Shown here: piece after piece, positions 20,457 through 33,808 of the stretch | Layout of the letters: every line of letters starts with the position of its first letter | Position numbering within the stretch: position 1 is the stretch's first letter | Assembly: GCA_018650465.1 (NCBI GenBank) | Contig: JABIFY010000028.1 | Location: 1 to 51,482 of the forward strand | Origin: Alphaproteobacteria bacterium | GTDB lineage: Bacteria; Pseudomonadota; Alphaproteobacteria; UBA2966 | Direction: 5' to 3' | Length of the DNA stretch: 51,482 nucleotides | Made by a program: the position numbers and the translations under genes | Notes under the pieces: generated by a model | What the model saw: the letters and a program-made list of their open reading frames with translations, nothing else | The model's database searches: none | Told to the model about the DNA's origin: nothing

Positions 20457-22385
20457 TTAATTGCGGTAGCGAAGCGGGACATTCTTCAGGCCAACCATCC
20501 AATAGGCGGCGCTAGGTGCGCCTTGAGCCAAAGCGACATCCTCAACGGATATCGACTGATCGCCATCGTCGCCAATTATCGTCACTTCATCGCCAAGTGC
20601 TGCGTCGGCGACGCCGGAAAGATCGATCACTGTGTATTCGCAACTGACGGCAAGAACCGGGCATCGCTGGCCCCGGCAAAGAACCTGGCCGGTCTGGCCC
20701 GCTGCCGCTGGCATGTAACCGTTGTCCATGCCAAGCAGCACAACGCCCGTTGTCGCGTCGGCATCCAGGCCGTCTGAATTGGTGCCGGCAAGATCATCGC
20801 CTTGCTTGCGGTCACCGATATGGATCAGTCGAGCGCGCAGACCTGTCATCGCTTTCCGGAAATTCTGGCTCGCCGCCAACAGCCCCTCGACCGGTGACAG
20901 ACCATACAGCAGATGGCCAGGCGAAATTGTATTCAGGGAATCGGGAAAATCATGTGACATAACGGAGCTGGCGGCGCCTTGCGCAAAAGGAATGCGAATA
21001 TCGTGTTCTGCTTCTACTTCAGCGACCAGATCGACAAATGCTGAGAGACGCCGTTGCGACCAGTCCGCGCCAGATGGGTCACCAAAGGGGATGTGTGTGT
21101 AAAGGCCTTCAAGTTCCAGACCAGGCAGGCTCAGCAACCGCCGTACAAAGGCCGCCGTCTCGTCCAGGCGCACGCCTAAGCGACCCAGGCCAGCGTCGAC
21201 TTTGACATGAACACTAATCTTGTGATCATGCCGTTCGGCAAGTGCCGCGAGCGCTGTCAAACCTTCATCAGAATAAACGCTGGGTGTCAAATCATGCGCC
21301 AATAAAGTGGCGTTGCCACCCGGTAGCTGCCCGCCATACATCAGGATAGGCAGATTTATACCTGCCTTTCGGATCTGGATCGCATCGTCGATATTTGCCG
21401 TCGCCAAACCGTCGACGCCTGTTTGTTCGAGATGGCGACCGACCTCGACGATGCCGTGACCATAGGCGTTGGCTTTGACCGGTACAATCATCTTGACCGG
21501 ACGCCCCGCTCTGGCCTTCAGGGATTCGAGATTGTGCGTCAGGGCCGAGAGATCGACATCTGCCCACAGTGGTCGGGCCTGTTCGTCAGGATCGCCAGAG
21601 ATCGAGTAAGTCCGCGTTGGGGAGAGAACGTCTGCGGACAATGGCTGCAGTGCTTCGCAGTCCCGGTCGTCGGGCACGATGTGCGCCGGTCGAACGCTCG
21701 GTCGGGTCCCTTTGTTGGACATGGCATTATAAGTGAGCGTTATCAGACGTCTGGGCCAAGGCGACAGATTGGCTGTTGATCCATGCAACAAATTGACGTC
21801 CATGAGAATAGCCGTTCCGGCCTCCCCCGTCGGCGCTGTGATACCAGCGCGTTTCACTTCGGCTTCGATCAAATCCCTGGACGCGTATCGAAAAGTATAG
21901 GACGTGCCCTCGTTGGATGGATCTGTCGCCGCTTCCGTCACCTTGTGGGAGCCCGGCACCAACATTAACGGCCCGCTGAATTCGTTGACGTCATCAAGGT
22001 AAATCAGAACATTGACCATACGGGATTCCGGGATGTGGTCGTCGTGTAAATAGCCGGGGTAATCCTGGTGCCAGAACCAGACGTCGCCGTTCAATGCGGC
22101 CTTGCAATTAACGCCCATTTGCCAGGCATAAACCTGTTCGCCCAGCAAGTCCTCTACGGCAGAGAGCAAATCAGGATGGCGGACGAAGTCAGCAAAAACG
22201 TCGTTCCACAGATGTGGGTTGAGAACGGTCCGCACCGTTTCGCCATCCTTCTCCAGGATCAGTCGCTTTTCATCAAAAGCCTGATCGAGGATGCGGTCTA
22301 CTTCAGCATTCAGGACACTGGTTTCTTCAATCGACAGCAAGCCGGGCTGCAATACAAAGCCCCGTTCAGCATATTCCGCGCGCAT
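20457..22385 (-). CDS. Fusion: PhyH-type Fe(II)/2-oxoglutarate dioxygenase + alanine racemase-like PLP domain
   Basis: A single 642-residue frame with two enzymes. Residues 1 to ~245 are a phytanoyl-CoA/ectoine-hydroxylase-like dioxygenase: iron ligands His106 and Asp108 in FWHQDYPG, His201 in LLHGSTANLSP, and Arg212/213 to bind 2-oxoglutarate. Residues ~272-642 are an alanine-racemase fold: the PLP lysine Lys304 in VKANAYGHG, KVDAGLGRLGVR near 395, SPGHLLYGLSP near 488, and a C-terminal VPLRY. Two key racemase residues appear changed. The Arg that contacts the PLP ring nitrogen is Ser488, and the second-domain catalytic Tyr falls in DDLAGTN (531-536) with no Tyr; MDQ is also CEY near 582-584. 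So the PLP half may not racemise. No stop or frameshift separates the halves. It is divergent from hyuA. Confidence 0.88.
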   Translation of the reverse strand: MRAEYAERGFVLQPGLLSIEETSVLNAEVDRILDQAFDEKRLILEKDGETVRTVLNPHLWNDVFADFVRHPDLLSAVEDLLGEQVYAWQMGVNCKAALNGDVWFWHQDYPGYLHDDHIPESRMVNVLIYLDDVNEFSGPLMLVPGSHKVTEAATDPSNEGTSYTFRYASRDLIEAEVKRAGITAPTGEAGTAILMDVNLLHGSTANLSPWPRRLITLTYNAMSNKGTRPSVRPAHIVPDDRDCEALQPLSADVLSPTRTYSISGDPDEQARPLWADVDLSALTHNLESLKARAGRPVKMIVPVKANAYGHGIVEVGRHLEQTGVDGLATANIDDAIQIRKAGINLPILMYGGQLPGGNATLLAHDLTPSVYSDEGLTALAALAERHDHKISVHVKVDAGLGRLGVRLDETAAFVRRLLSLPGLELEGLYTHIPFGDPSGADWSQRRLSAFVDLVAEVEAEHDIRIPFAQGAASSVMSHDFPDSLNTISPGHLLYGLSPVEGLLAASQNFRKAMTGLRARLIHIGDRKQGDDLAGTNSDGLDADATTGVVLLGMDNGYMPAAAGQTGQVLCRGQRCPVLAVSCEYTVIDLSGVADAALGDEVTIIGDDGDQSISVEDVALAQGAPSAAYWMVGLKNVPLRYRN

Positions 22386-22613
22386 TTTGGTCCTCTCTTG
22401 TGTCCCTGCATGTCACATACTTCCCAAAAAGAAGAAAGGAGGCTCGGGCCATGCCTGTTTGCAAAGACTAGTTCCTGAACATCTGCAATTCAACTCAATA
22501 ACCCCGATCCGTTGGTCGTTTAACAACTGTCGACATCAAGGCCGCCATTGCCCCTGATGCCTATTCTCAACGCATTAAAAGGTGGCTATCATCCCCGCAG
22601 GGAGGCGAAGCCT

Positions 22614-24695
22614 ATGCTTATGATTGGTGTCGACGTTGGCGGTACGTTTACGGATATTATTTTCACGGATACTGAGTCGGGGGAGACGCATACTCACAAA
22701 ACGCCAACGACGCCCGATGATCCGTCACGCGGCGTCATAAATGGCATCCACGAATTGTGTCAACGCAACAACGTTCCGGCCGCGGACATCGATCACGTCT
22801 TGCATGGCACAACCATTGCCACCAACGCCGTTCTTGAGCATGACGGTGCTGTGACCGGTATGATCACGAATGAAGGATTTCGCGACGTCCTCCATATCGG
22901 TCGTCATCAGCGACCTCTGAATTATTCAATCATGCAGGATATTCCATGGCAGCATACGCCACTGATTAAACGACGTCATCGTAAAGTCGTCCGCGAACGC
23001 CGGGTACCGCCTCTGGGTGAAATCATTGAGCCGTTGAATGAAGATGACGTACGGGCGGCGGCGCGTGAACTGCGCGCGGCTGGCGTCGAATCAGTCGCCA
23101 TCTGTTTTTTGTTCTCCTACATTGATTCAAGCCACGAAGATCGAGCCCGCGATATCGTGCTCGAGGAGATACCGGGGGCCTTCGTCACGACATCGGCGTC
23201 AGTGTCACCGCAGTTCCGTGAATTTGAACGCTTCACGACGGCTGCCATGAACGCCTTCATTGGACCCGGGGTGCGATCCTATATCAGCGAGATCGGCGGC
23301 AAACTCGAAGCTGAAGGCATGGCGGCCGATCTCCATATCATGGGATCCCACGGTGGCGTGGCCACGGCGGAAATGGTATCCGAAAAGCCGATCCTGACGC
23401 TTCTATCCGGTCCGGCGGCCGGTGTTCTTGGTGGGCAATGGACGGCGACCGGTGACGTTGAGCGACGCAACCTGATCACGTTCGACATCGGTGGCACCAG
23501 TGCCGATATTGGTCTGATCGTCGACGGCGTCTATTCCGAGGCCACCGCCCGTGATACGTCGATTGGCGGGTTTCCTGTGCTGGTGTCGATGATTGATATC
23601 ACGACGATTGGTGCCGGTGGTGGCTCGATCGCATATGTCGACAGCGGCGGCGCATTCAAGGTTGGTCCGCAAAGTGCCGGTTCTCAACCTGGTCCCGCTG
23701 CCTACGGTCGGGGTGGTGCCGAGCCGACCGTGAGTGACGCCAATGTTGTTCTCGGTCGACTGGATGCGAACAACTTCCTTGGCGGCGAAATGGAGCTGGA
23801 CCTCGACGCTGCGAAGAAGGTCATTTCGAAACTGGCCGGACAACTTGGTATGAGCGATGTGGAAACCGCTGAAGGTGTGCTCACCATCCTCAACAACAAT
23901 ATGGCGAATGCCATTCGGTCACGTACGGTCCAGAAGGGGTTAGACCCTCGGGACTTTTCGCTTGTTGCATTCGGTGGCGCTGGCCCGCTTCATGGTGCCG
24001 ATGTTGCTGATGCTCTGGGTATTCCTGAAGTTGTGATCCCGCCTCACCCAGGCATTACATCGGCAAGTGGTTTGCTCACAACCGACCTGAAATATGATCT
24101 TTTGAAAACCTCGTTTCAGATCAGTGGCGATGTCGACCTGGGCCGCATGAACGCAGATTTCGCTGAACTCGAAGCTATGCTGCTGGCGCAATATACTGCA
24201 GATGGCCTTGACCCAGGGGGCATCGAAATGCAGCGAACCGGCGACCTTCGGTACGTCGGCCAAGGCTATGAACTTCGTGTGACCGTGCCACCTGGCGTTC
24301 TGGACGACAATTCGATGGAAATGGTTTGGCAAGAATTCAGCGCCCGGCACGAGGCGGAATATGGTCACGCCTTTCCGGACAACTCAATTGAAGTCGTCAA
24401 TATTCGTCTGTCCGGCAAGGGTCAGATGCCAAAAATATCTCGTCGGAATGTGACCGGTGGTGGCACAGCCGCCAGTGCCCTTGTCCGGACAGGAAGCTGC
24501 GTATTCCGCGTCGAAGACCGGCTGCAGGAATTTGAAACCGGATACTATCGGCGAGACGAGTTGGCTGAAGGGGCTGTCGTTGATGGCCCTGCTGTGATCC
24601 TGCAGCAAGACACAACAACGGTCGTGCCTCCGACCTGGCGCGCGAAAATTGTGCTCGGCGGCAATATGATCCTGAACAAGGGAGAGCTTTCATGA
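22614..24695 (+). CDS. hyuA: Hydantoinase/oxoprolinase family protein, HyuA-like subunit
   Basis: ATP-dependent amidohydrolase or carboxylase subunit of 693 residues. GVDVGGTFTDIIF at the N-terminus is the ASKHA nucleotide-binding motif, HGTTIATNAVLE follows near residue 65, LSGPAAGVLGG lies near 265, FDIGGTSADIGL near 290, and FGGAGPLHGADVA near 455. The ATG at 22614 has GGAGG 8 bases upstream and is preferred over a TTG at 22548. HyuA works with the HyuB subunit encoded next, overlapping by 4 bp. Known activities are 5-oxoproline or N-methylhydantoin hydrolysis and acetone/acetophenone carboxylation. The sequence does not decide between them. Confidence 0.92.
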   Translation: MLMIGVDVGGTFTDIIFTDTESGETHTHKTPTTPDDPSRGVINGIHELCQRNNVPAADIDHVLHGTTIATNAVLEHDGAVTGMITNEGFRDVLHIGRHQRPLNYSIMQDIPWQHTPLIKRRHRKVVRERRVPPLGEIIEPLNEDDVRAAARELRAAGVESVAICFLFSYIDSSHEDRARDIVLEEIPGAFVTTSASVSPQFREFERFTTAAMNAFIGPGVRSYISEIGGKLEAEGMAADLHIMGSHGGVATAEMVSEKPILTLLSGPAAGVLGGQWTATGDVERRNLITFDIGGTSADIGLIVDGVYSEATARDTSIGGFPVLVSMIDITTIGAGGGSIAYVDSGGAFKVGPQSAGSQPGPAAYGRGGAEPTVSDANVVLGRLDANNFLGGEMELDLDAAKKVISKLAGQLGMSDVETAEGVLTILNNNMANAIRSRTVQKGLDPRDFSLVAFGGAGPLHGADVADALGIPEVVIPPHPGITSASGLLTTDLKYDLLKTSFQISGDVDLGRMNADFAELEAMLLAQYTADGLDPGGIEMQRTGDLRYVGQGYELRVTVPPGVLDDNSMEMVWQEFSARHEAEYGHAFPDNSIEVVNIRLSGKGQMPKISRRNVTGGGTAASALVRTGSCVFRVEDRLQEFETGYYRRDELAEGAVVDGPAVILQQDTTTVVPPTWRAKIVLGGNMILNKGELS

Positions 24696-26473
24696 CCGAA
24701 GTAACTGGAGATCGGACCGGGCAGGCAATTGATGTTGTCACGGCCAGTGTTATTCAAGGGGCACTGGAGAGCATCGCCGTCGAAATGGGCCATAAGCTGA
24801 TGCGGATGTCCTATTCCAGTATTATCCGTGAGTCCGAAGATTTCGGGGCGGCCCTGACTGATGCAGAGGGGCGTCAAATTGCCGAAACGCCGCAAAGCAC
24901 GCCGCTTCAATCGGGACCAATTCCCGGATATGTCAAAGGCATCAAGCAGATATTCGAAGAACGTGGCCACACTTTCGCACCCGGTGATGTTATTATTCAT
25001 AATTCTGCCTATCACGGCGCCAGCCACGGTCCAGACGTTGCCTTTTGCATTCCGGTTTTTTACGCAGACGTGCTTGTTGGTTTTTCCGTCACAACCGCTC
25101 ATCATCTTGACATTGGTGCATTGACGCCCGGCAGCTGCGGTATTGTTGATGCGATTGACGCCTATGCCGAAGGGTTGCAGTTCCTGGCTTTGAAAATTAT
25201 CGATCAGGGCGTACGGAACGAACCTCTCTGGCAGATGCTGCGCAACAATATCCGGGCCTCGGATCTTGTTGTCGGTGACATGGACGCACAGATTGCAGCC
25301 GCCCGTATCGGCGCGGATCGCCTGGTGGAACTGCTGGATCGATATGGACCCGCGACAATATCAGCGGCCGCCGATTTCATGATGGATCATTCGGAACGTA
25401 TGATGCGCCAGGCCATTGCTGAAATGCCCGACGGGGAGTACTCGGCGACGACCCACCTCGACGGGTTTATCGACGCTGAGAATCCGGCGCATCGCGATCT
25501 GCCGATCACCGTATCTCTGACAGTAAAAGGTAGCGATATTACCGTTGATTTCACGGGCACCGCTGATCAGGTTTCCGACCGACCGATCAATATGCCGATG
25601 GAAGGCACAACCGACTGCGCCGTCTGGCTGACGCTGAAGTCGATCCTGCTGGACTCAGCCATCCACGGAGATGTCCCGCAAAATAGTGGAATGACCCGTC
25701 CAATAACGATCATCGCCCCCGAAGGTTCGCTGGTAAACCCGATTTTTCCGGCCCCGACCATCGCGCGTTTCTGTACCGGTAATCAAGCCGCCGATACCGT
25801 CATGAAAGCGCTGGCGCAGGTCGTGCCGGAAAAAGTCAGCGCGGGTGTCGGCAATCTGCATGTGGTGTCTTTCAGCGGATTGCGAGGGGGCGAACATTGG
25901 GTTCATATGGAAATACATGAAGGCTGCTATGGTGGTCGTCTTGGCAAAGACGGTATGGATGCGGTCGATACGCTTTATGCCAATACGCGCAACAATCCGA
26001 TCGAGGATCTTGAGTCCCACCTGCCGTTGCGTGTCCATCGCTACGAGTTGCGCGACGAAGCCTGCCCGCCCGGTCGTTGGCGCGGCGGGATCGGGTCCGT
26101 ACGTGAGGTCGAGTTTCTTGAAGACGGCGGCGTGTCAGTTGAGGGCGAGGGCCACGTCCATGCACCCTGGGGATTTGATGGTGGCAGCAGCGGCGAAACT
26201 GCTCACATGAGTTTTCGCCCTACCCAAGGCAATGAACGCCGCTTGCCGTCCAAGCTGCCCAATTTGTCGACACGGGCGGGGGATCGTATCGAAGTTGTTG
26301 GGCCAAGCGGCGGTGGATACGGCAATCCTTTTGAGCGTGACCCCATCCAGGTTTGTGAGGATGTGATCGATGGATATCTTTCGCCAGAGCGGGCACTGAC
26401 GGATTATGGCGTTGTCATAACCGAAGAACTGACAGTGGATGATGCTGCAACGACCAGGTCGCGTGCCGGGTAG
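24692..26473 (+). CDS. hyuB: Hydantoinase B/oxoprolinase family protein, HyuB-like subunit
   Basis: Partner subunit of 593 residues, normal for HyuB. Landmarks are SIAVEMGHKLMRMSYSSIIRE near residue 30, FGAALTDAEGRQIAETPQS, then VIIHNSAYHGASHGPDVAF and TTAHHLDIGALTPGS, which carry the conserved His/Asp residues expected to bind metal. The C-terminal part has RWRGGIGSVREVEF and GPSGGGYGNPFERDP. The ATG overlaps the hyuA stop (ATGA), so the two subunits are made together. A quinone oxidoreductase-like gene follows after 23 bp. Substrate unknown; the dioxygenase-racemase fusion across the divergent promoter suggests an amino-acid derivative. Confidence 0.92.
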   Translation: MTEVTGDRTGQAIDVVTASVIQGALESIAVEMGHKLMRMSYSSIIRESEDFGAALTDAEGRQIAETPQSTPLQSGPIPGYVKGIKQIFEERGHTFAPGDVIIHNSAYHGASHGPDVAFCIPVFYADVLVGFSVTTAHHLDIGALTPGSCGIVDAIDAYAEGLQFLALKIIDQGVRNEPLWQMLRNNIRASDLVVGDMDAQIAAARIGADRLVELLDRYGPATISAAADFMMDHSERMMRQAIAEMPDGEYSATTHLDGFIDAENPAHRDLPITVSLTVKGSDITVDFTGTADQVSDRPINMPMEGTTDCAVWLTLKSILLDSAIHGDVPQNSGMTRPITIIAPEGSLVNPIFPAPTIARFCTGNQAADTVMKALAQVVPEKVSAGVGNLHVVSFSGLRGGEHWVHMEIHEGCYGGRLGKDGMDAVDTLYANTRNNPIEDLESHLPLRVHRYELRDEACPPGRWRGGIGSVREVEFLEDGGVSVEGEGHVHAPWGFDGGSSGETAHMSFRPTQGNERRLPSKLPNLSTRAGDRIEVVGPSGGGYGNPFERDPIQVCEDVIDGYLSPERALTDYGVVITEELTVDDAATTRSRAG

Positions 26474-27609: not shown

Positions 27610-28377
27610 TTAACCCGTTTTTGAAACCTTGACCCAGAGCTTCTGCGACAGGTCCGGTTCGATCCGGCGTAAATCACTTAATCTGTTGATCATGTTCTTG
27701 CTGAGCTTGGTATCCCGGCCGAGAACAATCTTGCCATTTGGTTCGACGTAATCCCTGGAGAGTATTCGGCCGACAGAAATGGGACCCAAGGCCAGTTCTT
27801 CCTCTGTTTTGGTTTCGTCGTCATCGTCAGAAACCTTGGGTCCTTCAATTTCTGGCTCATCCGGCTCTTCGGTAAGGGAGGGCAAGCCCAATCGTTTGAC
27901 GATATTTTGAAGGTCTTTGGAACCTGGTGTCGGAATTCGGCGATAGTCTGCCGCCGGCAGGTATTCCGGTGGCTCGTAGCGCGCATCTTCGAGGGCGGAA
28001 TAGAGCTCACTTTTTGAAACTGGCTTTGGAATAAAGGCGTTGACGTCCAGGGCCATGGCTTTTCCCACCAGGTCAAAGCCCTGCAAGGCCGTGAACATGA
28101 TAACCGGAAGGTCACGGGCAATGCCGGGAAACCCCACCCGGATAGATTTCAGTAACTCCAACCCGTTAACGGGCAACATATTGAGATCAGTTATGACAGC
28201 TTCGATCGTCTTGCCTTCTGTTGTGGCCTCGATCATGGCCTTGATTGCGGCAGCGCCATCTGTGGCGCTGATGATTTCGGCCTTGCGTTTGATCAGCAAG
28301 CGCTCGACGGCAAAGCGGCTGAAATCTTCATCATCCACAACCACAAAATATTTGCCTTCAACGTCAACCGCACACAT
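27610..28377 (-). CDS. Response regulator: receiver + HD-GYP-N-like C-terminal module
   Basis: Receiver domain in residues 8-125 with the acidic pair in VVVDDEDF, phospho-acceptor Asp64 in ITDLNM, Thr in MFTALQG and Lys in IPKPVSK. An acidic linker (EEPDEPEIEGPKVSDDDDETKTEEE) follows. The last ~60 residues (LGPISVGRILSRDYVEPNGKI, then VLGRDTKLSKNMINRLSDL) resemble the short module seen next to HD-GYP domains, of the form V-L-G-VL-D-dG-L-G-L-RL. The same module ends the regulator at 41363-42058. No DNA-binding domain. It lies 5 bp after the Hpt gene on the same strand, so the Hpt protein is its likely phosphodonor. Confidence 0.85.
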   Translation of the reverse strand: MCAVDVEGKYFVVVDDEDFSRFAVERLLIKRKAEIISATDGAAAIKAMIEATTEGKTIEAVITDLNMLPVNGLELLKSIRVGFPGIARDLPVIMFTALQGFDLVGKAMALDVNAFIPKPVSKSELYSALEDARYEPPEYLPAADYRRIPTPGSKDLQNIVKRLGLPSLTEEPDEPEIEGPKVSDDDDETKTEEELALGPISVGRILSRDYVEPNGKIVLGRDTKLSKNMINRLSDLRRIEPDLSQKLWVKVSKTG

Positions 28378-28382
28378 TCAAA

Positions 28383-28745
28383 TCACTCCGCGTTAAAAAA
28401 GTTGGGCACCCAGTTGGACAGCGTTGCCCCTACTTTGTCCAGGGATGACGCTAATTGATTACCTCTGGCGACAATTTCCGGCCAGTTTTGATCGGCCAGC
28501 GCCATTTCGATAGCTGCCAGATGTTCGGCTAATACTTCTGCACCAACACTTTTGGCCGCGCCTTTTGCGGCATGGGCCTGATGTTGAATGTTTTCCAGGT
28601 CACGATTTTCTATGGCGAGCTGCAACTCTACAAGTCGCGGTGCTACGGCCTCCAGAAAAAAACCAACCACTTCCCGAACATCGTCCTCGTCTTCAAGGTC
28701 CATGCGAAGTATCAGGTCGTCGATATCCAGATCTTGTGCAGTCAT
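28383..28745 (-). CDS. Stand-alone Hpt phosphotransfer protein
   Basis: Helical protein of 120 residues. HAAKGAAKSVGAEVLAEHL has the Hpt signature, with His58 as the phospho-acceptor and Lys61-Gly62 after it. No catalytic kinase domain is present. It would carry phosphate between receivers of the hybrid kinases and the single-domain regulators in this block. It is the first gene of a two-gene leftward unit with the receiver protein at 27610-28377. I do not see a strong ribosome binding site before the ATG at 28745. Confidence 0.88.
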   Translation of the reverse strand: MTAQDLDIDDLILRMDLEDEDDVREVVGFFLEAVAPRLVELQLAIENRDLENIQHQAHAAKGAAKSVGAEVLAEHLAAIEMALADQNWPEIVARGNQLASSLDKVGATLSNWVPNFFNAE

Positions 28746-28939
28746 GACATTTGTCCGGGCCCCTCAGACAGGTATTTCCAACCATTGCGAACCGGTACCA
28801 TAGTGACCCGCAATGCCATTGGAAACCCGGATTTGCTGGTCATTGATATGACCCCTTCAGCAAGTTGAACAAACCGTGGATTGAAAATTTCATCTCTGGG
28901 CTTAAAATGTGTCACCGGCAACTTATATCGTTTAATAGA

Positions 28940-29128
28940 TTAAAGCCTTGAAGCCACACCTGCATTAACCTGTTCTGAGTTTTCGCTTGCCCCTTTATCG
29001 CTATGTTCTTCAACGCCTTCGGAATTTGGTTCCCAAAATTGACGCTGATCATCGGCGATGGTATATTTAGACAGTCGAGCGAGCAGCTTTTCCCCCACAG
29101 AAATTTGGATACGATCGGACCCTCTCAT
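28940..29128 (-). CDS. Possible small acidic protein of unknown function
   Basis: A 62-residue frame whose codons look used: MRGSDRIQISVGEKLLARL, then SKYTIADDQRQFWEPNSEG, ending in an acidic, Glu-rich tail. It has no similarity I recognise, no signal peptide and no clear ribosome binding site. Its start codon overlaps that of the receiver-EAL gene on the opposite strand, so one of the two starts may be misplaced. It fills most of a 381-base gap between the Hpt gene and the EAL gene, which is otherwise empty. Confidence 0.3.
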   Translation of the reverse strand: MRGSDRIQISVGEKLLARLSKYTIADDQRQFWEPNSEGVEEHSDKGASENSEQVNAGVASRL

Positions 29129-30350
29129 GCCGTCAGAGATCAACACTGATTTTCATGGTTTCAACTATCTTGTTGTCGACGACGAGGCGTTTATTCGCAC
29201 ACTTATTGTCCGTATCCTCGTTTCTATCGGTGTTGACAAGGAAAAAGTCACAGCCCGTGAGAGCGGTCTGGAAGCGATTGACTTTATGGGAAATGGCGGC
29301 GACGAAATTATCGACATGGTGATTTGTGATCTGAACATGCCGGATATGGACGGTATCGAATTTCTGAGACACCTGGCCCTGAGATCCTTTGCCGGCGGCA
29401 TTGTACTTGTTAGTGGTGAAGATACACGCATCTTGAAGGCAGCCGAGGAACTGGCCCAGGCCCATAGCCTGAAAATTCTCGGTGCCTTGCCCAAGCCCTT
29501 GAAACCAGACCATCTATCGAACCTGCTGTCAGCATTCGATTCGTCGTCCGCTGCTCGCGGTAATCGTTCCACAGCAGAGATCGGGATCAATGATTTGGCC
29601 GCCGCCATATCCGAACGCCAGATTTCAGTGGTTTTTCAGCCCAAACTGTCGACATCCAGTCAGACATTGATCGGTGTTGAAACACTGGCGCGCTGGATTC
29701 ACCCGGAAAAGGGTTTTATTCCGCCGGATATTTTTGTTCACCTTGCGGAAGAAAACAATCTGGTTGATGAGCTAACCAGTTTGATTATTGACCTGGCAAT
29801 TGAACAAGGTGCGTCCTGGCTTAAGCAGGGCCTGGAGATAAAGATTGCCATTAATCTCTCGGTCGATAATCTGAACGATCTTGACCTGACAAAAAAACTC
29901 GAACAGAAAATTGCCGATGCCGGTTTGCAAGCGCGCAATATCATCCTTGAAGTAACCGAGAGCCGCCTGATGGTCGATATCACCAAGCCGCTTGAGATAT
30001 TGACCCGGTTGCGGATGAAGGGTTTCTCCCTGTCGATTGACGATTTTGGTACGGGGCATTCATCGCTCGAACAACTAAAGCGTATTCCCTTCACCGAGCT
30101 CAAAATCGACCGGGCGTTTGTTGATGGCGCTGCACAGGATCCGGCGACAAGGGCAATCCTCGAATCATCTGTCGATCTGGCAAAAAAACTAGAGATGTCG
30201 GTTGTTGCCGAAGGCGTTGAAAGGCGCGAGGATTGGGATCTTGTCGCCAGTCTCGGCTGTGATCTGGTTCAGGGGTATTTTGTCGCCAGACCTATGCCTG
30301 GCGATGACATTCTCGCCTGGAAAGAGGGTTGGAGCGGCATAAGCGATTAA
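29127..30350 (+). CDS. Receiver-EAL protein, c-di-GMP phosphodiesterase
   Basis: A receiver (residues 12-135; YLVVDDEAF, acceptor Asp68 in VICDLNMPDMDG, Lys in LPKPLKP) is followed by an EAL domain (about 150-400). The catalytic set looks intact: ETLARW in place of EAL, NLS, EVTES, DDFGTGHSSL, LKIDRAFV and AEGVE. It should hydrolyse c-di-GMP when phosphorylation allows. The ATG at 29127 is chosen because the receiver begins just after it; the frame is open to 29058. It is the only rightward gene in this part of the signalling block, and its stop lies 7 bases from that of the leftward kinase at 30358. Confidence 0.92.
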   Translation: MPSEINTDFHGFNYLVVDDEAFIRTLIVRILVSIGVDKEKVTARESGLEAIDFMGNGGDEIIDMVICDLNMPDMDGIEFLRHLALRSFAGGIVLVSGEDTRILKAAEELAQAHSLKILGALPKPLKPDHLSNLLSAFDSSSAARGNRSTAEIGINDLAAAISERQISVVFQPKLSTSSQTLIGVETLARWIHPEKGFIPPDIFVHLAEENNLVDELTSLIIDLAIEQGASWLKQGLEIKIAINLSVDNLNDLDLTKKLEQKIADAGLQARNIILEVTESRLMVDITKPLEILTRLRMKGFSLSIDDFGTGHSSLEQLKRIPFTELKIDRAFVDGAAQDPATRAILESSVDLAKKLEMSVVAEGVERREDWDLVASLGCDLVQGYFVARPMPGDDILAWKEGWSGISD

Positions 30351-30357
30351 CGAAGAT

Positions 30358-33300
30358 TTACATCCCGGCAATAAAGTCTGTTACTTCACGTAACCTCGAT
30401 TTTAGTTGCGGTGCCATCGTTCTGACCGGTTTCCAGTCCCCGTTCTTACCAGCTGATTCCAGCTTGTCGCAAATATCCGCAAGTTCTATTGCCCCGACCG
30501 AACGGGCGGCAGATTTTAGTTTGTGCGTACCGGCAACCACACCCTCCAGCGAATCCTCCTGGATGGCGGTTTCAACTTCTTTGCAACAGACCTTTGACGG
30601 GTCGACAAATTCCTTGAGAATTTCAACTATCGTTTCCCGGTCGTCGCCGAAAGTCTCCTCGAGAAAAGATAAATCGAAAGGGCCATTCCCACTGGTTTGC
30701 TCAACGGAAGCACTGTTTTTGCCGCCAGAAGTAACCGGTGTGCCCGACGCGGCCCCCATCCACTTTTTAAGCATGGCATGAAGCTTGGCAATCTCAACTG
30801 GTTTGGGCAGGAACCCGTCCATGCCACAGTCATAACATTGCTGAACTTCTTCCGTCAGAGCGCTGGCGGTGATTGCAACAATAGGCATTCGCCTGGATGC
30901 CCCATTCTGTTCCCGTTTTCTGACTTCGGTGGTCAAACCAAATCCGTCGAGGTTCGGCATATGACAATCCGTCAGCAGAAGGGCAATATCTCTCTCGGCC
31001 AGCATTCTCAACGCGATCTCGCCATCATCGGCGATAATGACTGAGTATCCGAGGCTGTTTAGCTGTCGAATAATAACTTTCTGATTGGTCAGGTTGTCTT
31101 CAGCCAGAAGGATCAACTGCCCTGCGGCTTCGGCATCTTCCGGGCTTAAGGGTTCTACGATATTGGCGAATTGTTCATCGTCCCGGCTATAATCCACATC
31201 CGGGCTGGTCAATCCTGCGGCGGCCGCAATGGCGCGCAGGAAGCTGCTGCGTTTGATCGGATTGAGGACGGTATAGACCGTATCAAGAAGATCTTCCCGT
31301 TCCGTGAGGCGGTGATTGACGGGCAGGACAAATTTTACATTTTTCAGGTTGTCGTTGGACTGGATAGATCGGACGGTGTCAGTTCTGATCCTGAAGCCTT
31401 CATTCTCAATATACACAACGTCAAACGGCGCGCTCGATTGTGCTGTGACAACCTGAGCCTCAATCTCGTCAAACCTGGTCTGGACTGAAACGTGTGCGCC
31501 CCAGTGTTCAAGGTAGGAAAGCAGGAATTCAGTTATTTGCGGATCTTTGGAAGCCATCAAAACGTTGATGCCCTCAAGATCAAAGCCATCAGTCGCAATT
31601 CGGTGATCGGCTGAAACCGGAAAAGTAATTGTCACGGAGAAACATGAGCCTTTTCCAAGTTCACTTTCAACACCAATGCTGCCCTGCATAATATCGACCA
31701 GGCGCTGGGAGATCGTCAGGCCAAGACCGGTGCCGCCGAATTTTCGCGTTGTCGACATCTCGGCTTGTGAAAAGGCGTCAAAAAGGCCTGATCTGGCCTC
31801 TTCCGAAATGCCAATGCCACTATCAATGACCTGAAGTCTTAGTGTGACCTCGTCCTGGTGTTCCGTCTCCATAAGGTCAACCCGGATTACGACTCTGCCC
31901 TCTTCCGTAAATTTGATGGCATTGCCACAGAGATTGAACAGTATTTGGCGGAGTCTCCCCGAATCCCCAAGTACGGCAACCGGGATTTGCGGATCGACAT
32001 AAGAGATCAGTTCAATACCTTTGTTCCGCGCGTTAGGTCCCAATGTCTCCGCGACGCCTTCGACGACGTCGCTGATTGAAGTGGGAATGGATTCAAGCTC
32101 AAGTTTGCCGGCTTCAATTTTTGAGAAATCCAGAATGTCATTTATGATGGTCAACAAGGCGTAGGCAGAGGAGCGAACGGTGTCGACCATTTCGTGCTGA
32201 TCGTTCGTCATTTTGGACTGCTTCAGCAAATCGATCATGCCAATGACGCCGTTCATTGGGGTGCGAATTTCATGACTCATCGCGGCCAGGAACTCTGCCT
32301 TGACCTTTGTCGCCTTTTCAGCTTCGTCGCGTGCCGCTGCCAGTTCACTTGTCCGGTCTTCGACCAGATGCTCCAGATTGGAATGGGTATCCTCAAGCGC
32401 CTTCTCAGCCCTCCGCCTTTCGGCGTTCTCTTGTTCGAGGCTTGTTACTTTGTCGAGAATTGAATCCCGCATTGCCGACAGGGACTTGGCGAGAACACCA
32501 ATTTCGTCATTACGATCAATGGCGATATCCTGACTCAAGTCGCCTTTGCTCATCGCCTCAGCAGAAACCTTAAGTGAAGCGATCGGTCGCGTGATGCTCA
32601 TGCCAATCAAAGCTGCAGCAAAGATCCCAAGTCCAATCACCAACACAGCGGCAAAGATCGAGATAATGATTGAACGGTTCAGGCCCGCCTGAGCTTTCGG
32701 GCCGAGAATATCCTGAGATTCCTTAATCGCCAATTTCAGGCGCTCGATGCGATTGGCAACATCGGGACCGATCCGATCCAGCTCATACCGTATTATCTCG
32801 TTCCGATCGATGATAACCTGATGAACCTTGTCAAAAGACCGGAGATACTCCGCTTGGGTTTTCTTGACTGATTCAGCCAGCTTTTGCCGCTCTGGATTTT
32901 CCAATTCTGATGCCATCTTGGCGAAGTTGAATTCGAGATCACGGAATTCACGAATGGCCCTGGCTCTTGAGGCGCCGTCGTTTTCGATCAGGAATCGATT
33001 TGCATATAGTCGGCCCAGCAACAGACTGCGTAAGGTAATACCTGCCTCATAGGCGGCTCTGGTATCACCATCCTGCAACGCGCTTGTCATGATCGCCGTC
33101 AATTGTTTTTCGATCTCAGGGCCCAGTTTATTAAGTTTGTTGGACACAAGATCATCACGCTCTTGCTGCAGTTCCGTGACTTCTCCGAACTTGTCAACGT
33201 AGCGTTTTAAACTCTCCTCCAGGTCGCTGAGCAATATTGTTCGGCCGGTATCCGAGCCGCCGAGTTCTCTGTTTTCGCGAATAAGCTCGAGAGTTTTTTG

Positions 33301-33555
33301 GGCACGGTTCTGCACGCCAACGATATTTTCCCGGTTGGCATCAATCACAAAGTTTTTGGCAAAAATTCGGGTTGTCAACATGTTGGCCTGAACGCGGCCA
33401 TCAGCATTGGTCTGGCGCGCCAGTTGGCGGTATGTTGCAAAGGTTTCCTCAGCGCTTTTGAGACCAAGCAGGCCGACGCCGGCAACAATCAAAGCCAGCA
33501 ACAGCACGCAACTGAACCCAAGATAAATTTTAGTCGAGATTTTCAGGTTTTTCAT
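30358..33555 (-). CDS. Hybrid histidine kinase: helical periplasmic sensor-HAMP-HisKA-HATPase-pseudoREC-REC-Hpt
   Basis: Sensor kinase of about 1065 residues. TM1 (~11-32) and TM2 (~297-318) flank a ~265-residue all-helical periplasmic domain of the HBM/TorS-like sort. HAMP (~320-372) and a coiled coil lead to HisKA with His429 in SHEIRTPMNG (numbered from the GTG at 33558) and an intact HATPase (N box GNAIKF, DSGIGI, FGGTGLGL). The first receiver (~662-780) lacks its Asp (VVYIENEG). The second (~815-930) has Asp864 in TDCHMPNLDG. The C-terminal Hpt has His1012 in THKLKSAARSVG. The TorS-like sensor suggests partnership with the TorT-like protein at 40082, though 6.5 kb away. GTG at 33558 directly precedes the ATG used here. 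Confidence 0.93.
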   Translation of the reverse strand: MKNLKISTKIYLGFSCVLLLALIVAGVGLLGLKSAEETFATYRQLARQTNADGRVQANMLTTRIFAKNFVIDANRENIVGVQNRAQKTLELIRENRELGGSDTGRTILLSDLEESLKRYVDKFGEVTELQQERDDLVSNKLNKLGPEIEKQLTAIMTSALQDGDTRAAYEAGITLRSLLLGRLYANRFLIENDGASRARAIREFRDLEFNFAKMASELENPERQKLAESVKKTQAEYLRSFDKVHQVIIDRNEIIRYELDRIGPDVANRIERLKLAIKESQDILGPKAQAGLNRSIIISIFAAVLVIGLGIFAAALIGMSITRPIASLKVSAEAMSKGDLSQDIAIDRNDEIGVLAKSLSAMRDSILDKVTSLEQENAERRRAEKALEDTHSNLEHLVEDRTSELAAARDEAEKATKVKAEFLAAMSHEIRTPMNGVIGMIDLLKQSKMTNDQHEMVDTVRSSAYALLTIINDILDFSKIEAGKLELESIPTSISDVVEGVAETLGPNARNKGIELISYVDPQIPVAVLGDSGRLRQILFNLCGNAIKFTEEGRVVIRVDLMETEHQDEVTLRLQVIDSGIGISEEARSGLFDAFSQAEMSTTRKFGGTGLGLTISQRLVDIMQGSIGVESELGKGSCFSVTITFPVSADHRIATDGFDLEGINVLMASKDPQITEFLLSYLEHWGAHVSVQTRFDEIEAQVVTAQSSAPFDVVYIENEGFRIRTDTVRSIQSNDNLKNVKFVLPVNHRLTEREDLLDTVYTVLNPIKRSSFLRAIAAAAGLTSPDVDYSRDDEQFANIVEPLSPEDAEAAGQLILLAEDNLTNQKVIIRQLNSLGYSVIIADDGEIALRMLAERDIALLLTDCHMPNLDGFGLTTEVRKREQNGASRRMPIVAITASALTEEVQQCYDCGMDGFLPKPVEIAKLHAMLKKWMGAASGTPVTSGGKNSASVEQTSGNGPFDLSFLEETFGDDRETIVEILKEFVDPSKVCCKEVETAIQEDSLEGVVAGTHKLKSAARSVGAIELADICDKLESAGKNGDWKPVRTMAPQLKSRLREVTDFIAGM

Positions 33556-33808
33556 CACCAGGAGTATCCGCTATGGTTTCGATTGTCGAATTGCTACGCA
33601 AAAAGTTCAGGCGGAGAATGCAGCTCTACCTTGGCTGTTCGCCAGGGTTTCATCCTTGATACTGACTATTGATGTCAACAACCAAACAATTACTGATGGA
33701 CATAGGTCCCTCTGCACTTTTTAACATATATTTATCCATCAAACGGGAGAATATATGTCAAACGTGGTTCAGGCATTGGCATTTGCCAGAGACTGAATTA
33801 GCTGCTGG

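What the first reader, a model, noticed from the sequence alone, without database searches (positions are those of the whole stretch)
20457..22385. Dioxygenase-racemase fusion whose racemase half has lost two catalytic residues
One uninterrupted frame joins a PhyH/ectoine-hydroxylase-like Fe(II) dioxygenase (His106, Asp108, His201 present) to an alanine-racemase fold (PLP Lys304 present). By eye, the Arg that contacts the PLP ring nitrogen is Ser488 and the opposing catalytic Tyr is absent in the 531-536 segment. In classical alanine racemase both are needed for two-base racemisation. Loss of both, with the fold and PLP lysine kept, points to another PLP reaction (for example decarboxylation, retro-aldol or dehydration) coupled to a hydroxylation in the same polypeptide. 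I do not know of a described enzyme with this architecture.
Basis: partly seen in the sequence, partly recalled or inferred. Interest (0 to 1): 0.85.

Follow-up and report, generated by a model that had tools for sequence, protein, structure and literature searches.

The report
Hydroxylase fused to altered racemase
A bacterial gene joins an amino-acid-type hydroxylase to a relative of alanine racemase that lacks two residues racemases need, so it probably carries out a different reaction, perhaps cutting hydroxylated amino acids, but no activity has been shown.

Summary
One 642-codon minus-strand frame (22385 to 20457) joins a PhyH Fe(II)/2-oxoglutarate hydroxylase (His106, Asp108, His201) to an alanine-racemase fold (PLP Lys304); Ser488 stands at Arg219, Gly534 at catalytic Tyr265. 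An independent MAG (L037, 63% identity) is fused too, so it is no assembly slip; three other close relatives encode the pair in the same order as genes overlapping by 4 nt, and three distant ones hold it adjacent in the opposite order.

The losses are older than the fusion. They mark a clade: 0 of 15 members compared have Arg219, 0 of 15 Tyr265, 15 of 15 have Glu for Asp313; all 24 ordinary racemases compared have Arg, Tyr, Asp. Lys39, Tyr43, Arg136, His166 and Ser204 are kept in 15 of 15; the other two inner-gate tyrosines are also lost.

Most likely reading (inferred, unproven): a hydroxylase plus a PLP enzyme in which His166, freed of both partners, cleaves a beta-hydroxy amino acid (retro-aldol), as the engineered Tyr265Ala racemase does. 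Dehydration and a re-built racemase stay live. Seven of 15 members have no hydroxylase on the same contig. NCBIfam's cut-off would name this protein alanine racemase. My searches found one other fused copy and no published description.

The parts
20457..22385 (-). whole fused gene, 642 codons plus stop
21747..22373 (-). PhyH Fe(II)/2-oxoglutarate hydroxylase domain, residues 5-213
   Evidence: modelled alone it matches GriE, proline hydroxylase H11 and EctD
22062..22070 (-). iron ligands His106 and Asp108 (HxD)
   Evidence: invariant in the 9 rows of alignment A3
21783..21785 (-). third iron ligand His201
21576..21620 (-). linker between the halves, residues 256-270
   Evidence: residues 259-270 have pLDDT under 50; in three relatives this is where one gene stops and the next starts
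20892..21557 (-). Ala_racemase_N (PLP barrel), residues 277-498
20517..20840 (-). Ala_racemase_C, residues 516-623
21474..21476 (-). Lys304, PLP lysine (Lys39), kept in 15 of 15
21093..21095 (-). His431 (His166), kept in 15 of 15; proposed base
   Evidence: role inferred from the engineered Tyr265Ala enzyme
20922..20924 (-). Ser488 at the place of Arg219 on the pyridine nitrogen
20784..20786 (-). Gly534 at the place of catalytic Tyr265
20637..20639 (-). Glu583 at the place of Asp313, Glu in 15 of 15
22614..24695 (+). divergent neighbour, HyuA-like (N-methylhydantoinase/oxoprolinase/caprolactamase alpha type); start chosen by eye, the listed frame opens at 22548
   Evidence: best NCBIfam model caprolactamase alpha, 558 bits, under its cut-off of 1000
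24692..26473 (+). HyuB-like neighbour
   Evidence: caprolactamase beta 270 bits, cut-off 1000 not reached

Best explanation
A two-step enzyme for amino acids in one chain. Shown by sequence: a Fe(II)/2-oxoglutarate domain of the free-amino-acid hydroxylase type is joined to an alanine-racemase-fold PLP domain of a clade that has lost the Arg on the pyridine nitrogen, the opposing catalytic Tyr and the other two inner-gate tyrosines, and keeps the PLP lysine, Arg136, His166 and Ser204. Inferred: the first half puts a hydroxyl on the beta carbon of a free amino acid larger than alanine. The second half binds the product as PLP aldimine; His166, no longer tied to Arg219 and Tyr265, takes the proton from the beta-hydroxyl and the C-alpha to C-beta bond breaks (retro-aldol) into glycine and an aldehyde. 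The widened gate admits the larger substrate. The pair is a self-contained catabolic module, fused in two genomes, overlapping in three and adjacent in three more.
For: Residue pattern over 15 clade members against 24 ordinary racemases: Arg219, Tyr265, Tyr284 and Tyr354 lost together, His166, Lys39, Arg136 and Ser204 kept. Tyr265Ala alone turns G. stearothermophilus racemase into an aldolase for D-beta-hydroxy amino acids, with His166 as proposed base and no metal (passages of PMC4401734, PMC3962088, PMC6411801). Arg219 is tied to His168 (His166), which contacts Tyr265 (PMC3245724 passage), so in this clade His166 has lost both partners. D-threonine aldolase contacts the pyridine nitrogen with a neutral Gln, not Arg. 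The PhyH half is nearest in fold to GriE, H11 and EctD (Z 32.4, 32.0, 31.0; next family 24.6), and H11 entries include 3-hydroxyproline, hydroxylated next to the alpha carbon. Gene linkage in 8 of 15, in two gene orders. Codon-position differences to L037 show purifying selection on both halves.
Against: No chemical step is shown. The engineered aldolase accepts D-configured substrates only, while GriE and H11 were solved with L-leucine and L-proline. The site hydroxylated is unknown; GriE and EctD do not hydroxylate the beta carbon (recalled). Two of 15 members have Ala at the Arg place, which cannot bond the pyridine nitrogen. Seven of 15 have no linked PhyH, and G067 has none genome-wide at E 1e-20. 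No neighbour gene is shared by the five closest loci. Eight of the ten Cys-type members have a Tyr three or four residues after the Tyr265 column; I read it as the aromatic residue many ordinary racemases have there, but a loop shift is not excluded for them.
Confidence: 0.35

Rival explanations
1. Re-built racemase or epimerase: Lys304 still works on one face and another group, such as the invariant Glu583, replaces Tyr265 on the other. The hydroxylase then acts on the inverted amino acid, or the racemase on the hydroxylated one.
For: Asp313 has become Glu in 15 of 15 clade members and in the six wider relatives looked at, and in 0 of 24 ordinary racemases. The NCBIfam alanine racemase cut-off is passed. 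L034 lacks Arg but keeps Tyr, so loss of Arg alone need not end racemisation. Eight of ten Cys-type members have a Tyr near the lost one.
Against: All three inner-gate tyrosines and Met312 are changed in 15 of 15, more than a swap of one base needs; the broad racemases Lyr and Bar lack Tyr354 yet keep Tyr265 and Arg219 (PMC3485190 passage).
Confidence: 0.25
2. Beta-elimination: the hydroxylated amino acid is dehydrated to a 2-oxo acid and ammonia, like a metal-free D-serine or D-threonine dehydratase.
For: Ser on the pyridine nitrogen is the rule in fold type II enzymes (PMC6411801 passage), among them Ser/Thr dehydratases; rat serine dehydratase has Cys there (recalled). D-serine dehydratases share the racemase fold (PMC4401734 passage).
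Against: The metal-site domain of fold III dehydratases (PF14031, recalled) was not among the four families reported for this protein at E up to 1; the engineered precedent with this residue loss is an aldolase.
Confidence: 0.2
3. Other chemistry or no coupling: the PLP half does something else (transamination, decarboxylation, PLP carrier) or the two halves act on unrelated substrates and were fused only because the genes overlapped.
For: Close relatives hold the pair as 4-nt overlapping genes, from which a fusion arises easily; seven clade members lack a linked hydroxylase.
Against: The pair is linked in two gene orders, in Alphaproteobacteria and in a MAG labelled Actinomycetota, which chance would not easily give. 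Fold III decarboxylases have an acidic residue on the ring nitrogen (recalled), not Ser or Cys.
Confidence: 0.2

Closest known systems
Alanine racemase (Alr/DadX; PF01168 + PF00842, TIGR00492)
   Same: Fold, PLP lysine, Tyr43, Arg136, His166, Ser204
   Different: Arg219, Tyr265, Tyr284, Tyr354, Met312 and Asp313 all changed; fused to a hydroxylase
Engineered Tyr265Ala alanine racemase (Seebeck and Hilvert 2003, seen as cited in PMC4401734 and PMC3962088)
   Same: Racemase fold without the catalytic Tyr, His166 kept
   Different: Engineered enzyme keeps Arg219; natural clade lost it too; activity here unknown
D-threonine aldolase and D-serine dehydratase (fold III)
   Same: Barrel of the same superfamily (4v15 hit at E 8e-6 over 264-430); neutral residue on the pyridine nitrogen
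   Different: C-terminal part is Ala_racemase_C, no metal-site domain found
GriE, proline 3/4-hydroxylase H11, EctD (PhyH family)
   Same: Whole fold and HxD...H ligands of the first half
   Different: 30-35% identity, single-domain enzymes; substrate of this half unknown
Trimethyllysine hydroxylase plus hydroxytrimethyllysine aldolase of carnitine synthesis (recalled)
   Same: Fe(II)/2-oxoglutarate beta-hydroxylation followed by PLP retro-aldol cleavage
   Different: Separate enzymes of other folds; analogy of logic only

Membership tests
Alanine racemase | Ala_racemase_N and _C domains, racemase fold | tested here: met
   TIGR00492 222.3 bits against cut-off 168
Alanine racemase | PLP lysine (Lys39) | tested here: met
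   Lys304
Alanine racemase | Arg on the pyridine nitrogen (Arg219) | tested here: not met
   Ser488; 0 of 15 clade members, 24 of 24 ordinary racemases
Alanine racemase | catalytic Tyr265 | tested here: not met
   Gly534; 0 of 15 (one has a gap there) against 24 of 24
Alanine racemase | racemises alanine | not testable with these tools
   needs enzyme assay
D-threonine aldolase / D-serine dehydratase | metal-site C-terminal domain (PF14031, number recalled) | tested here: not met
   Pfam scan to E 1 lists four families, not this one
D-threonine aldolase / D-serine dehydratase | cleaves or dehydrates D-beta-hydroxy amino acids | not testable with these tools
   needs enzyme assay
PhyH free-amino-acid hydroxylases | PhyH fold with HxD...H iron ligands | tested here: met
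PhyH free-amino-acid hydroxylases | acts on a free amino acid | not testable with these tools
   nearest solved relatives do
Ectoine hydroxylase EctD (TIGR02408) | curated score cut-off | tested here: not met
   152.1 bits against 336.5
Fold III amino-acid decarboxylases | acidic residue on the pyridine nitrogen (recalled) | tested here: not met
   Ser488 in the window; three wider relatives (L036, L076, L077) do have Asp there

The most novel reading that the evidence does not exclude
In an old clade of alanine-racemase-fold proteins nature has made the switch that chemists made with Tyr265Ala, went further by dropping Arg219 as well, and tied it to an amino-acid hydroxylase, in one chain or one operon: an oxidative 'hydroxylate, then cut' enzyme that shortens amino acids to glycine and an aldehyde without a metal in the PLP site. 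Alphaproteobacterial genes of this clade that are called alanine racemase would then be aldolases or lyases.
Probability: 0.3. Interest if true: 0.78.

Novelty: new variant of a known kind. Interest (0 to 1): 0.56.

Why it matters
If right, it is a natural counterpart of a well-known engineered change of PLP reaction type, gives a one-chain oxidative amino-acid cutting enzyme, and shows that the NCBIfam alanine racemase model (cut-off passed by this protein) can misname proteins whose catalytic residues are gone. It is open to direct test with one purified protein.

Tried and rejected
Sequencing-error fusion: rejected, because L037, from a different assembly, is fused in frame with a different linker.

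Housekeeping racemase of this genome: unlikely; the genome has what looks like an ordinary Alr in two pieces at contig ends, an N-terminal match at C6:59605-60252 (contig of 60,337 bases) and a C-terminal match at C14:4-381. That the two belong together is inferred. These pieces (L080, L081) gave no blast hit over the limit and were dropped before the residue counts.

Decay of a racemase half: unlikely, given the codon-position differences and the residues kept in 15 of 15.

Wide spread: in 398 genomes sampled over the phylum, 10 matched the clade profile at E 1e-70; the nine besides the window are ordinary racemases with Arg, Tyr and Asp. In 385 genomes of the class, 16 places in 15 genomes matched the racemase half at E 1e-40: 11 of this clade, 1 Asp-type, 1 Asn-type, 3 ordinary; at most five first-look candidates per genome were scored there, so this is a lower bound. 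Among the matches printed for 96 relatives only the window's own covers both halves, but that list was cut. The three genome samples overlap. Plasmids: 313 of 72,556 records matched, none over 80% of the query. Viral contigs gave 14 loci, at most 36% identical in the best segment; their catalytic residues were not looked at and none is counted, five served as rows for the structure job.

Shared neighbourhood: none common to the five closest loci among the genes I named. L037 has an amine oxidase and an L,D-transpeptidase (two further genes without a family), L038 GlmU-like, GlmS-like and MFS genes, L039 HflX-like, aminotransferase class IV and cyclase-like genes, G757 a solute-binding-like protein (by eye). 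My crude gene caller missed genes, among them the racemase-like gene in L046, so the absence of a linked hydroxylase in seven genomes rests on the genome-wide PhyH search; some of the contigs are short (for example 7.9 and 12.3 kb).

Literature: (alanine racemase with phytanoyl-CoA dioxygenase and fusion; with racemase fold, retro-aldol, hydroxylase, PLP, non-heme iron; with dioxygenase, fusion protein, pyridoxal, bifunctional; with D-threonine aldolase, fold type III, hydroxylase) listed no description of this architecture; only titles and abstract starts of the listings were seen, and the library holds open-licence papers only. Searches gave nothing on the H11 structures. No solved structure matched by the clade profile at E 1e-10 bears a name other than a racemase or an engineered protein (49 distinct sequences); their residues were not checked one by one.

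Full report
Observation. The frame at 20457-22385 is a 642-codon gene on the minus strand. Pfam finds PhyH (5-213), Ala_racemase_N (277-498) and Ala_racemase_C (516-623), all over cut-off. NCBIfam's alanine racemase equivalog is passed (222.3 bits against 168), the ectoine hydroxylase model is not (152.1 against 336.5).

The two residues. phmmer against the crystallised G. stearothermophilus racemase aligns Arg219 with Ser488 and, without a gap between, Tyr265 with Gly534 (counted by hand). E. coli Alr gives the same columns in MAFFT alignments. The model of the full chain (16-row alignment, mean pLDDT 84.4) has a second half that matches racemases closely (4y2w, Z 38.3, rmsd 2.6 over 368 residues). 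No residue pairs are printed by the fold tools, so the calls rest on sequence.

The fusion is real and probably young. A scan of genome contigs with the whole protein gave 8 loci that encode a relative. Three hold both halves. L037 is one open frame, as in the window, at 63% identity. L038 and L039 have two frames in which the hydroxylase stop and the racemase-like start overlap by four bases (GTGA and ATGA, starts chosen by me). L040 held a hydroxylase alone, but its genome (G757, a MAG labelled Actinomycetota) has another hydroxylase copy next to a racemase-like gene with the same GTGA overlap. Window and L037 are sisters in the trees of both halves (SH-aLRT 94, just under the usual mark of 95, and 98), so one fusion event is the simplest reading. 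Both halves are under purifying selection: differences between window and L037 at codon positions 1, 2, 3 are 0.24, 0.19, 0.58 in the hydroxylase and 0.27, 0.23, 0.60 in the racemase half.

The residue losses are older than the fusion. I compared 15 proteins of the clade (window, L037, L038, L039, L129, L022 to L031) with 24 ordinary racemases from the same searches, E. coli included. At the Arg219 place the 15 have Cys (10), Ser (3) or Ala (2); at the Tyr265 place none has Tyr (one has a gap); at the Asp313 place all have Glu. The 24 all have Arg, Tyr and Asp. The other two inner-gate tyrosines are gone in 15 of 15: Tyr284 (Met, Leu, Ala, Ile, Thr; 24 of 24 ordinary ones have Tyr) and Tyr354 (Ala, Leu, Ile, Arg; 21 of 24 ordinary ones have Tyr). 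Lys39, Tyr43, Arg136, His166 and Ser204 are kept in 15 of 15. Equating E. coli with G. stearothermophilus numbers is mine. Against this reading: 8 of the 10 Cys-type members have a Tyr three or four residues after the Tyr265 column; the window and its four closest relatives have none there. The 15 form one branch (SH-aLRT 98), beside an Asp-type group (L036, L076, L077) and one Asn-type protein that keeps the Tyr (L034). Two plasmid proteins of Sinorhizobium and Phyllobacterium, annotated alanine racemase, have Ala at the Arg place, Glu at the Asp place, and Tyr or Val at the Tyr place; they were not put in the tree.

Link to the hydroxylase. In 8 of the 15 the PhyH gene is fused (2), overlaps (3) or is adjacent in the opposite order (3: G229, G318, G127). 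In the other seven no PhyH match lies on the same contig, and G067 has none at E 1e-20. A PhyH tree of 24 rows (21 of the 31 places, the window, and two duplicates) puts the six nearest the window in one clade (100). The adjacent-gene PhyHs of G229, G318 and G127 group with a second G229 copy and a G081 copy (support 81 only), apart from the remaining 12 rows (99). The G081 copy is on a 4-kb contig, so its link to that genome's racemase-like gene is open.

What the hydroxylase half resembles. Modelled alone (pLDDT 88.8) it matches GriE (Z 32.4), proline 3/4-hydroxylase H11 (32.0) and EctD (31.0), well above the next family at 24.6. These act on free amino acids or ectoine. H11 was solved with 3-hydroxyproline among others, so hydroxylation next to the alpha carbon has a precedent nearby; proline itself, a secondary amine, would not suit a PLP partner. 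The substrate here is unknown.

How it may work. From passages of papers: Arg219 holds the pyridine nitrogen, is tied to His200 and His168 (His166), and the latter contacts Tyr265; Arg219 is proposed to favour racemisation over other PLP reactions (PMC3245724). Changing Tyr265 to Ala turns the enzyme into an aldolase for D-beta-hydroxy amino acids with His166 as proposed base and no metal (PMC4401734, PMC3962088, PMC6411801). D-threonine aldolase bonds the nitrogen with Gln. In the clade described here both partners of His166 are gone and His166 is invariant. From this I infer retro-aldol cleavage of a beta-hydroxy amino acid fed by the hydroxylase. No chemical step is shown. Dehydration, and a racemase with a new base such as Glu583, are the main rivals; the invariant Asp-to-Glu change is the strongest point for the latter.

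Points against. The engineered aldolase takes D-configured substrates only, while the nearest hydroxylases were solved with L-amino acids. The Arg place tolerates Ala. Seven of 15 do without a linked hydroxylase. No neighbour gene that I named is shared by the five closest loci. In the window the gene faces HyuA/HyuB-like genes; G081 has HyuA/HyuB homologues directly behind its racemase-like gene; G200 has an M20 peptidase before it and a solute-binding protein of family 5 nearby; G318 a proline-racemase-family gene and two FAD oxidoreductases. This suits amino-acid catabolism in general, not one pathway.

Verdict. I rate it a new variant of a known kind.

Noticed in passing
L036 (G067:C67), L076 (G070:C48), L077 (G025:C54); L034 (G243:C258): Racemase-like proteins with Asp (three) or Asn (one) at the Arg219 place; the Asp-type also lacks Tyr265. 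Asp there would be expected to protonate the pyridine nitrogen as in fold type I enzymes.
   Followed up: partly
L149:7971-9134 and L150:7938-9110: Plasmid genes of Sinorhizobium meliloti and Phyllobacterium annotated alanine racemase have Ala at Arg219 and Glu at Asp313 and sit beside ABC importer and phosphodiesterase genes.
   Followed up: partly
G000:C6:59605-60252 and G000:C14:4-381: The genome's ordinary-looking alanine racemase seems broken over two contig ends.
   Followed up: partly
22548-26473: HyuA-like and HyuB-like genes, overlapping by 4 nt, run divergently from the fused gene; homologues lie behind the racemase-like gene of G081.
   Followed up: partly
L040:7801-8553 and L129:5999-7207: Two close PhyH copies in one MAG labelled Actinomycetota (G757), one of them paired with the racemase-like gene; transfer or contamination of the MAG is possible.
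   Followed up: no
27610-33558: Frames that look like response regulators, an Hpt-like protein, an EAL-type protein and a large hybrid histidine kinase stand together (by eye).
   Followed up: no
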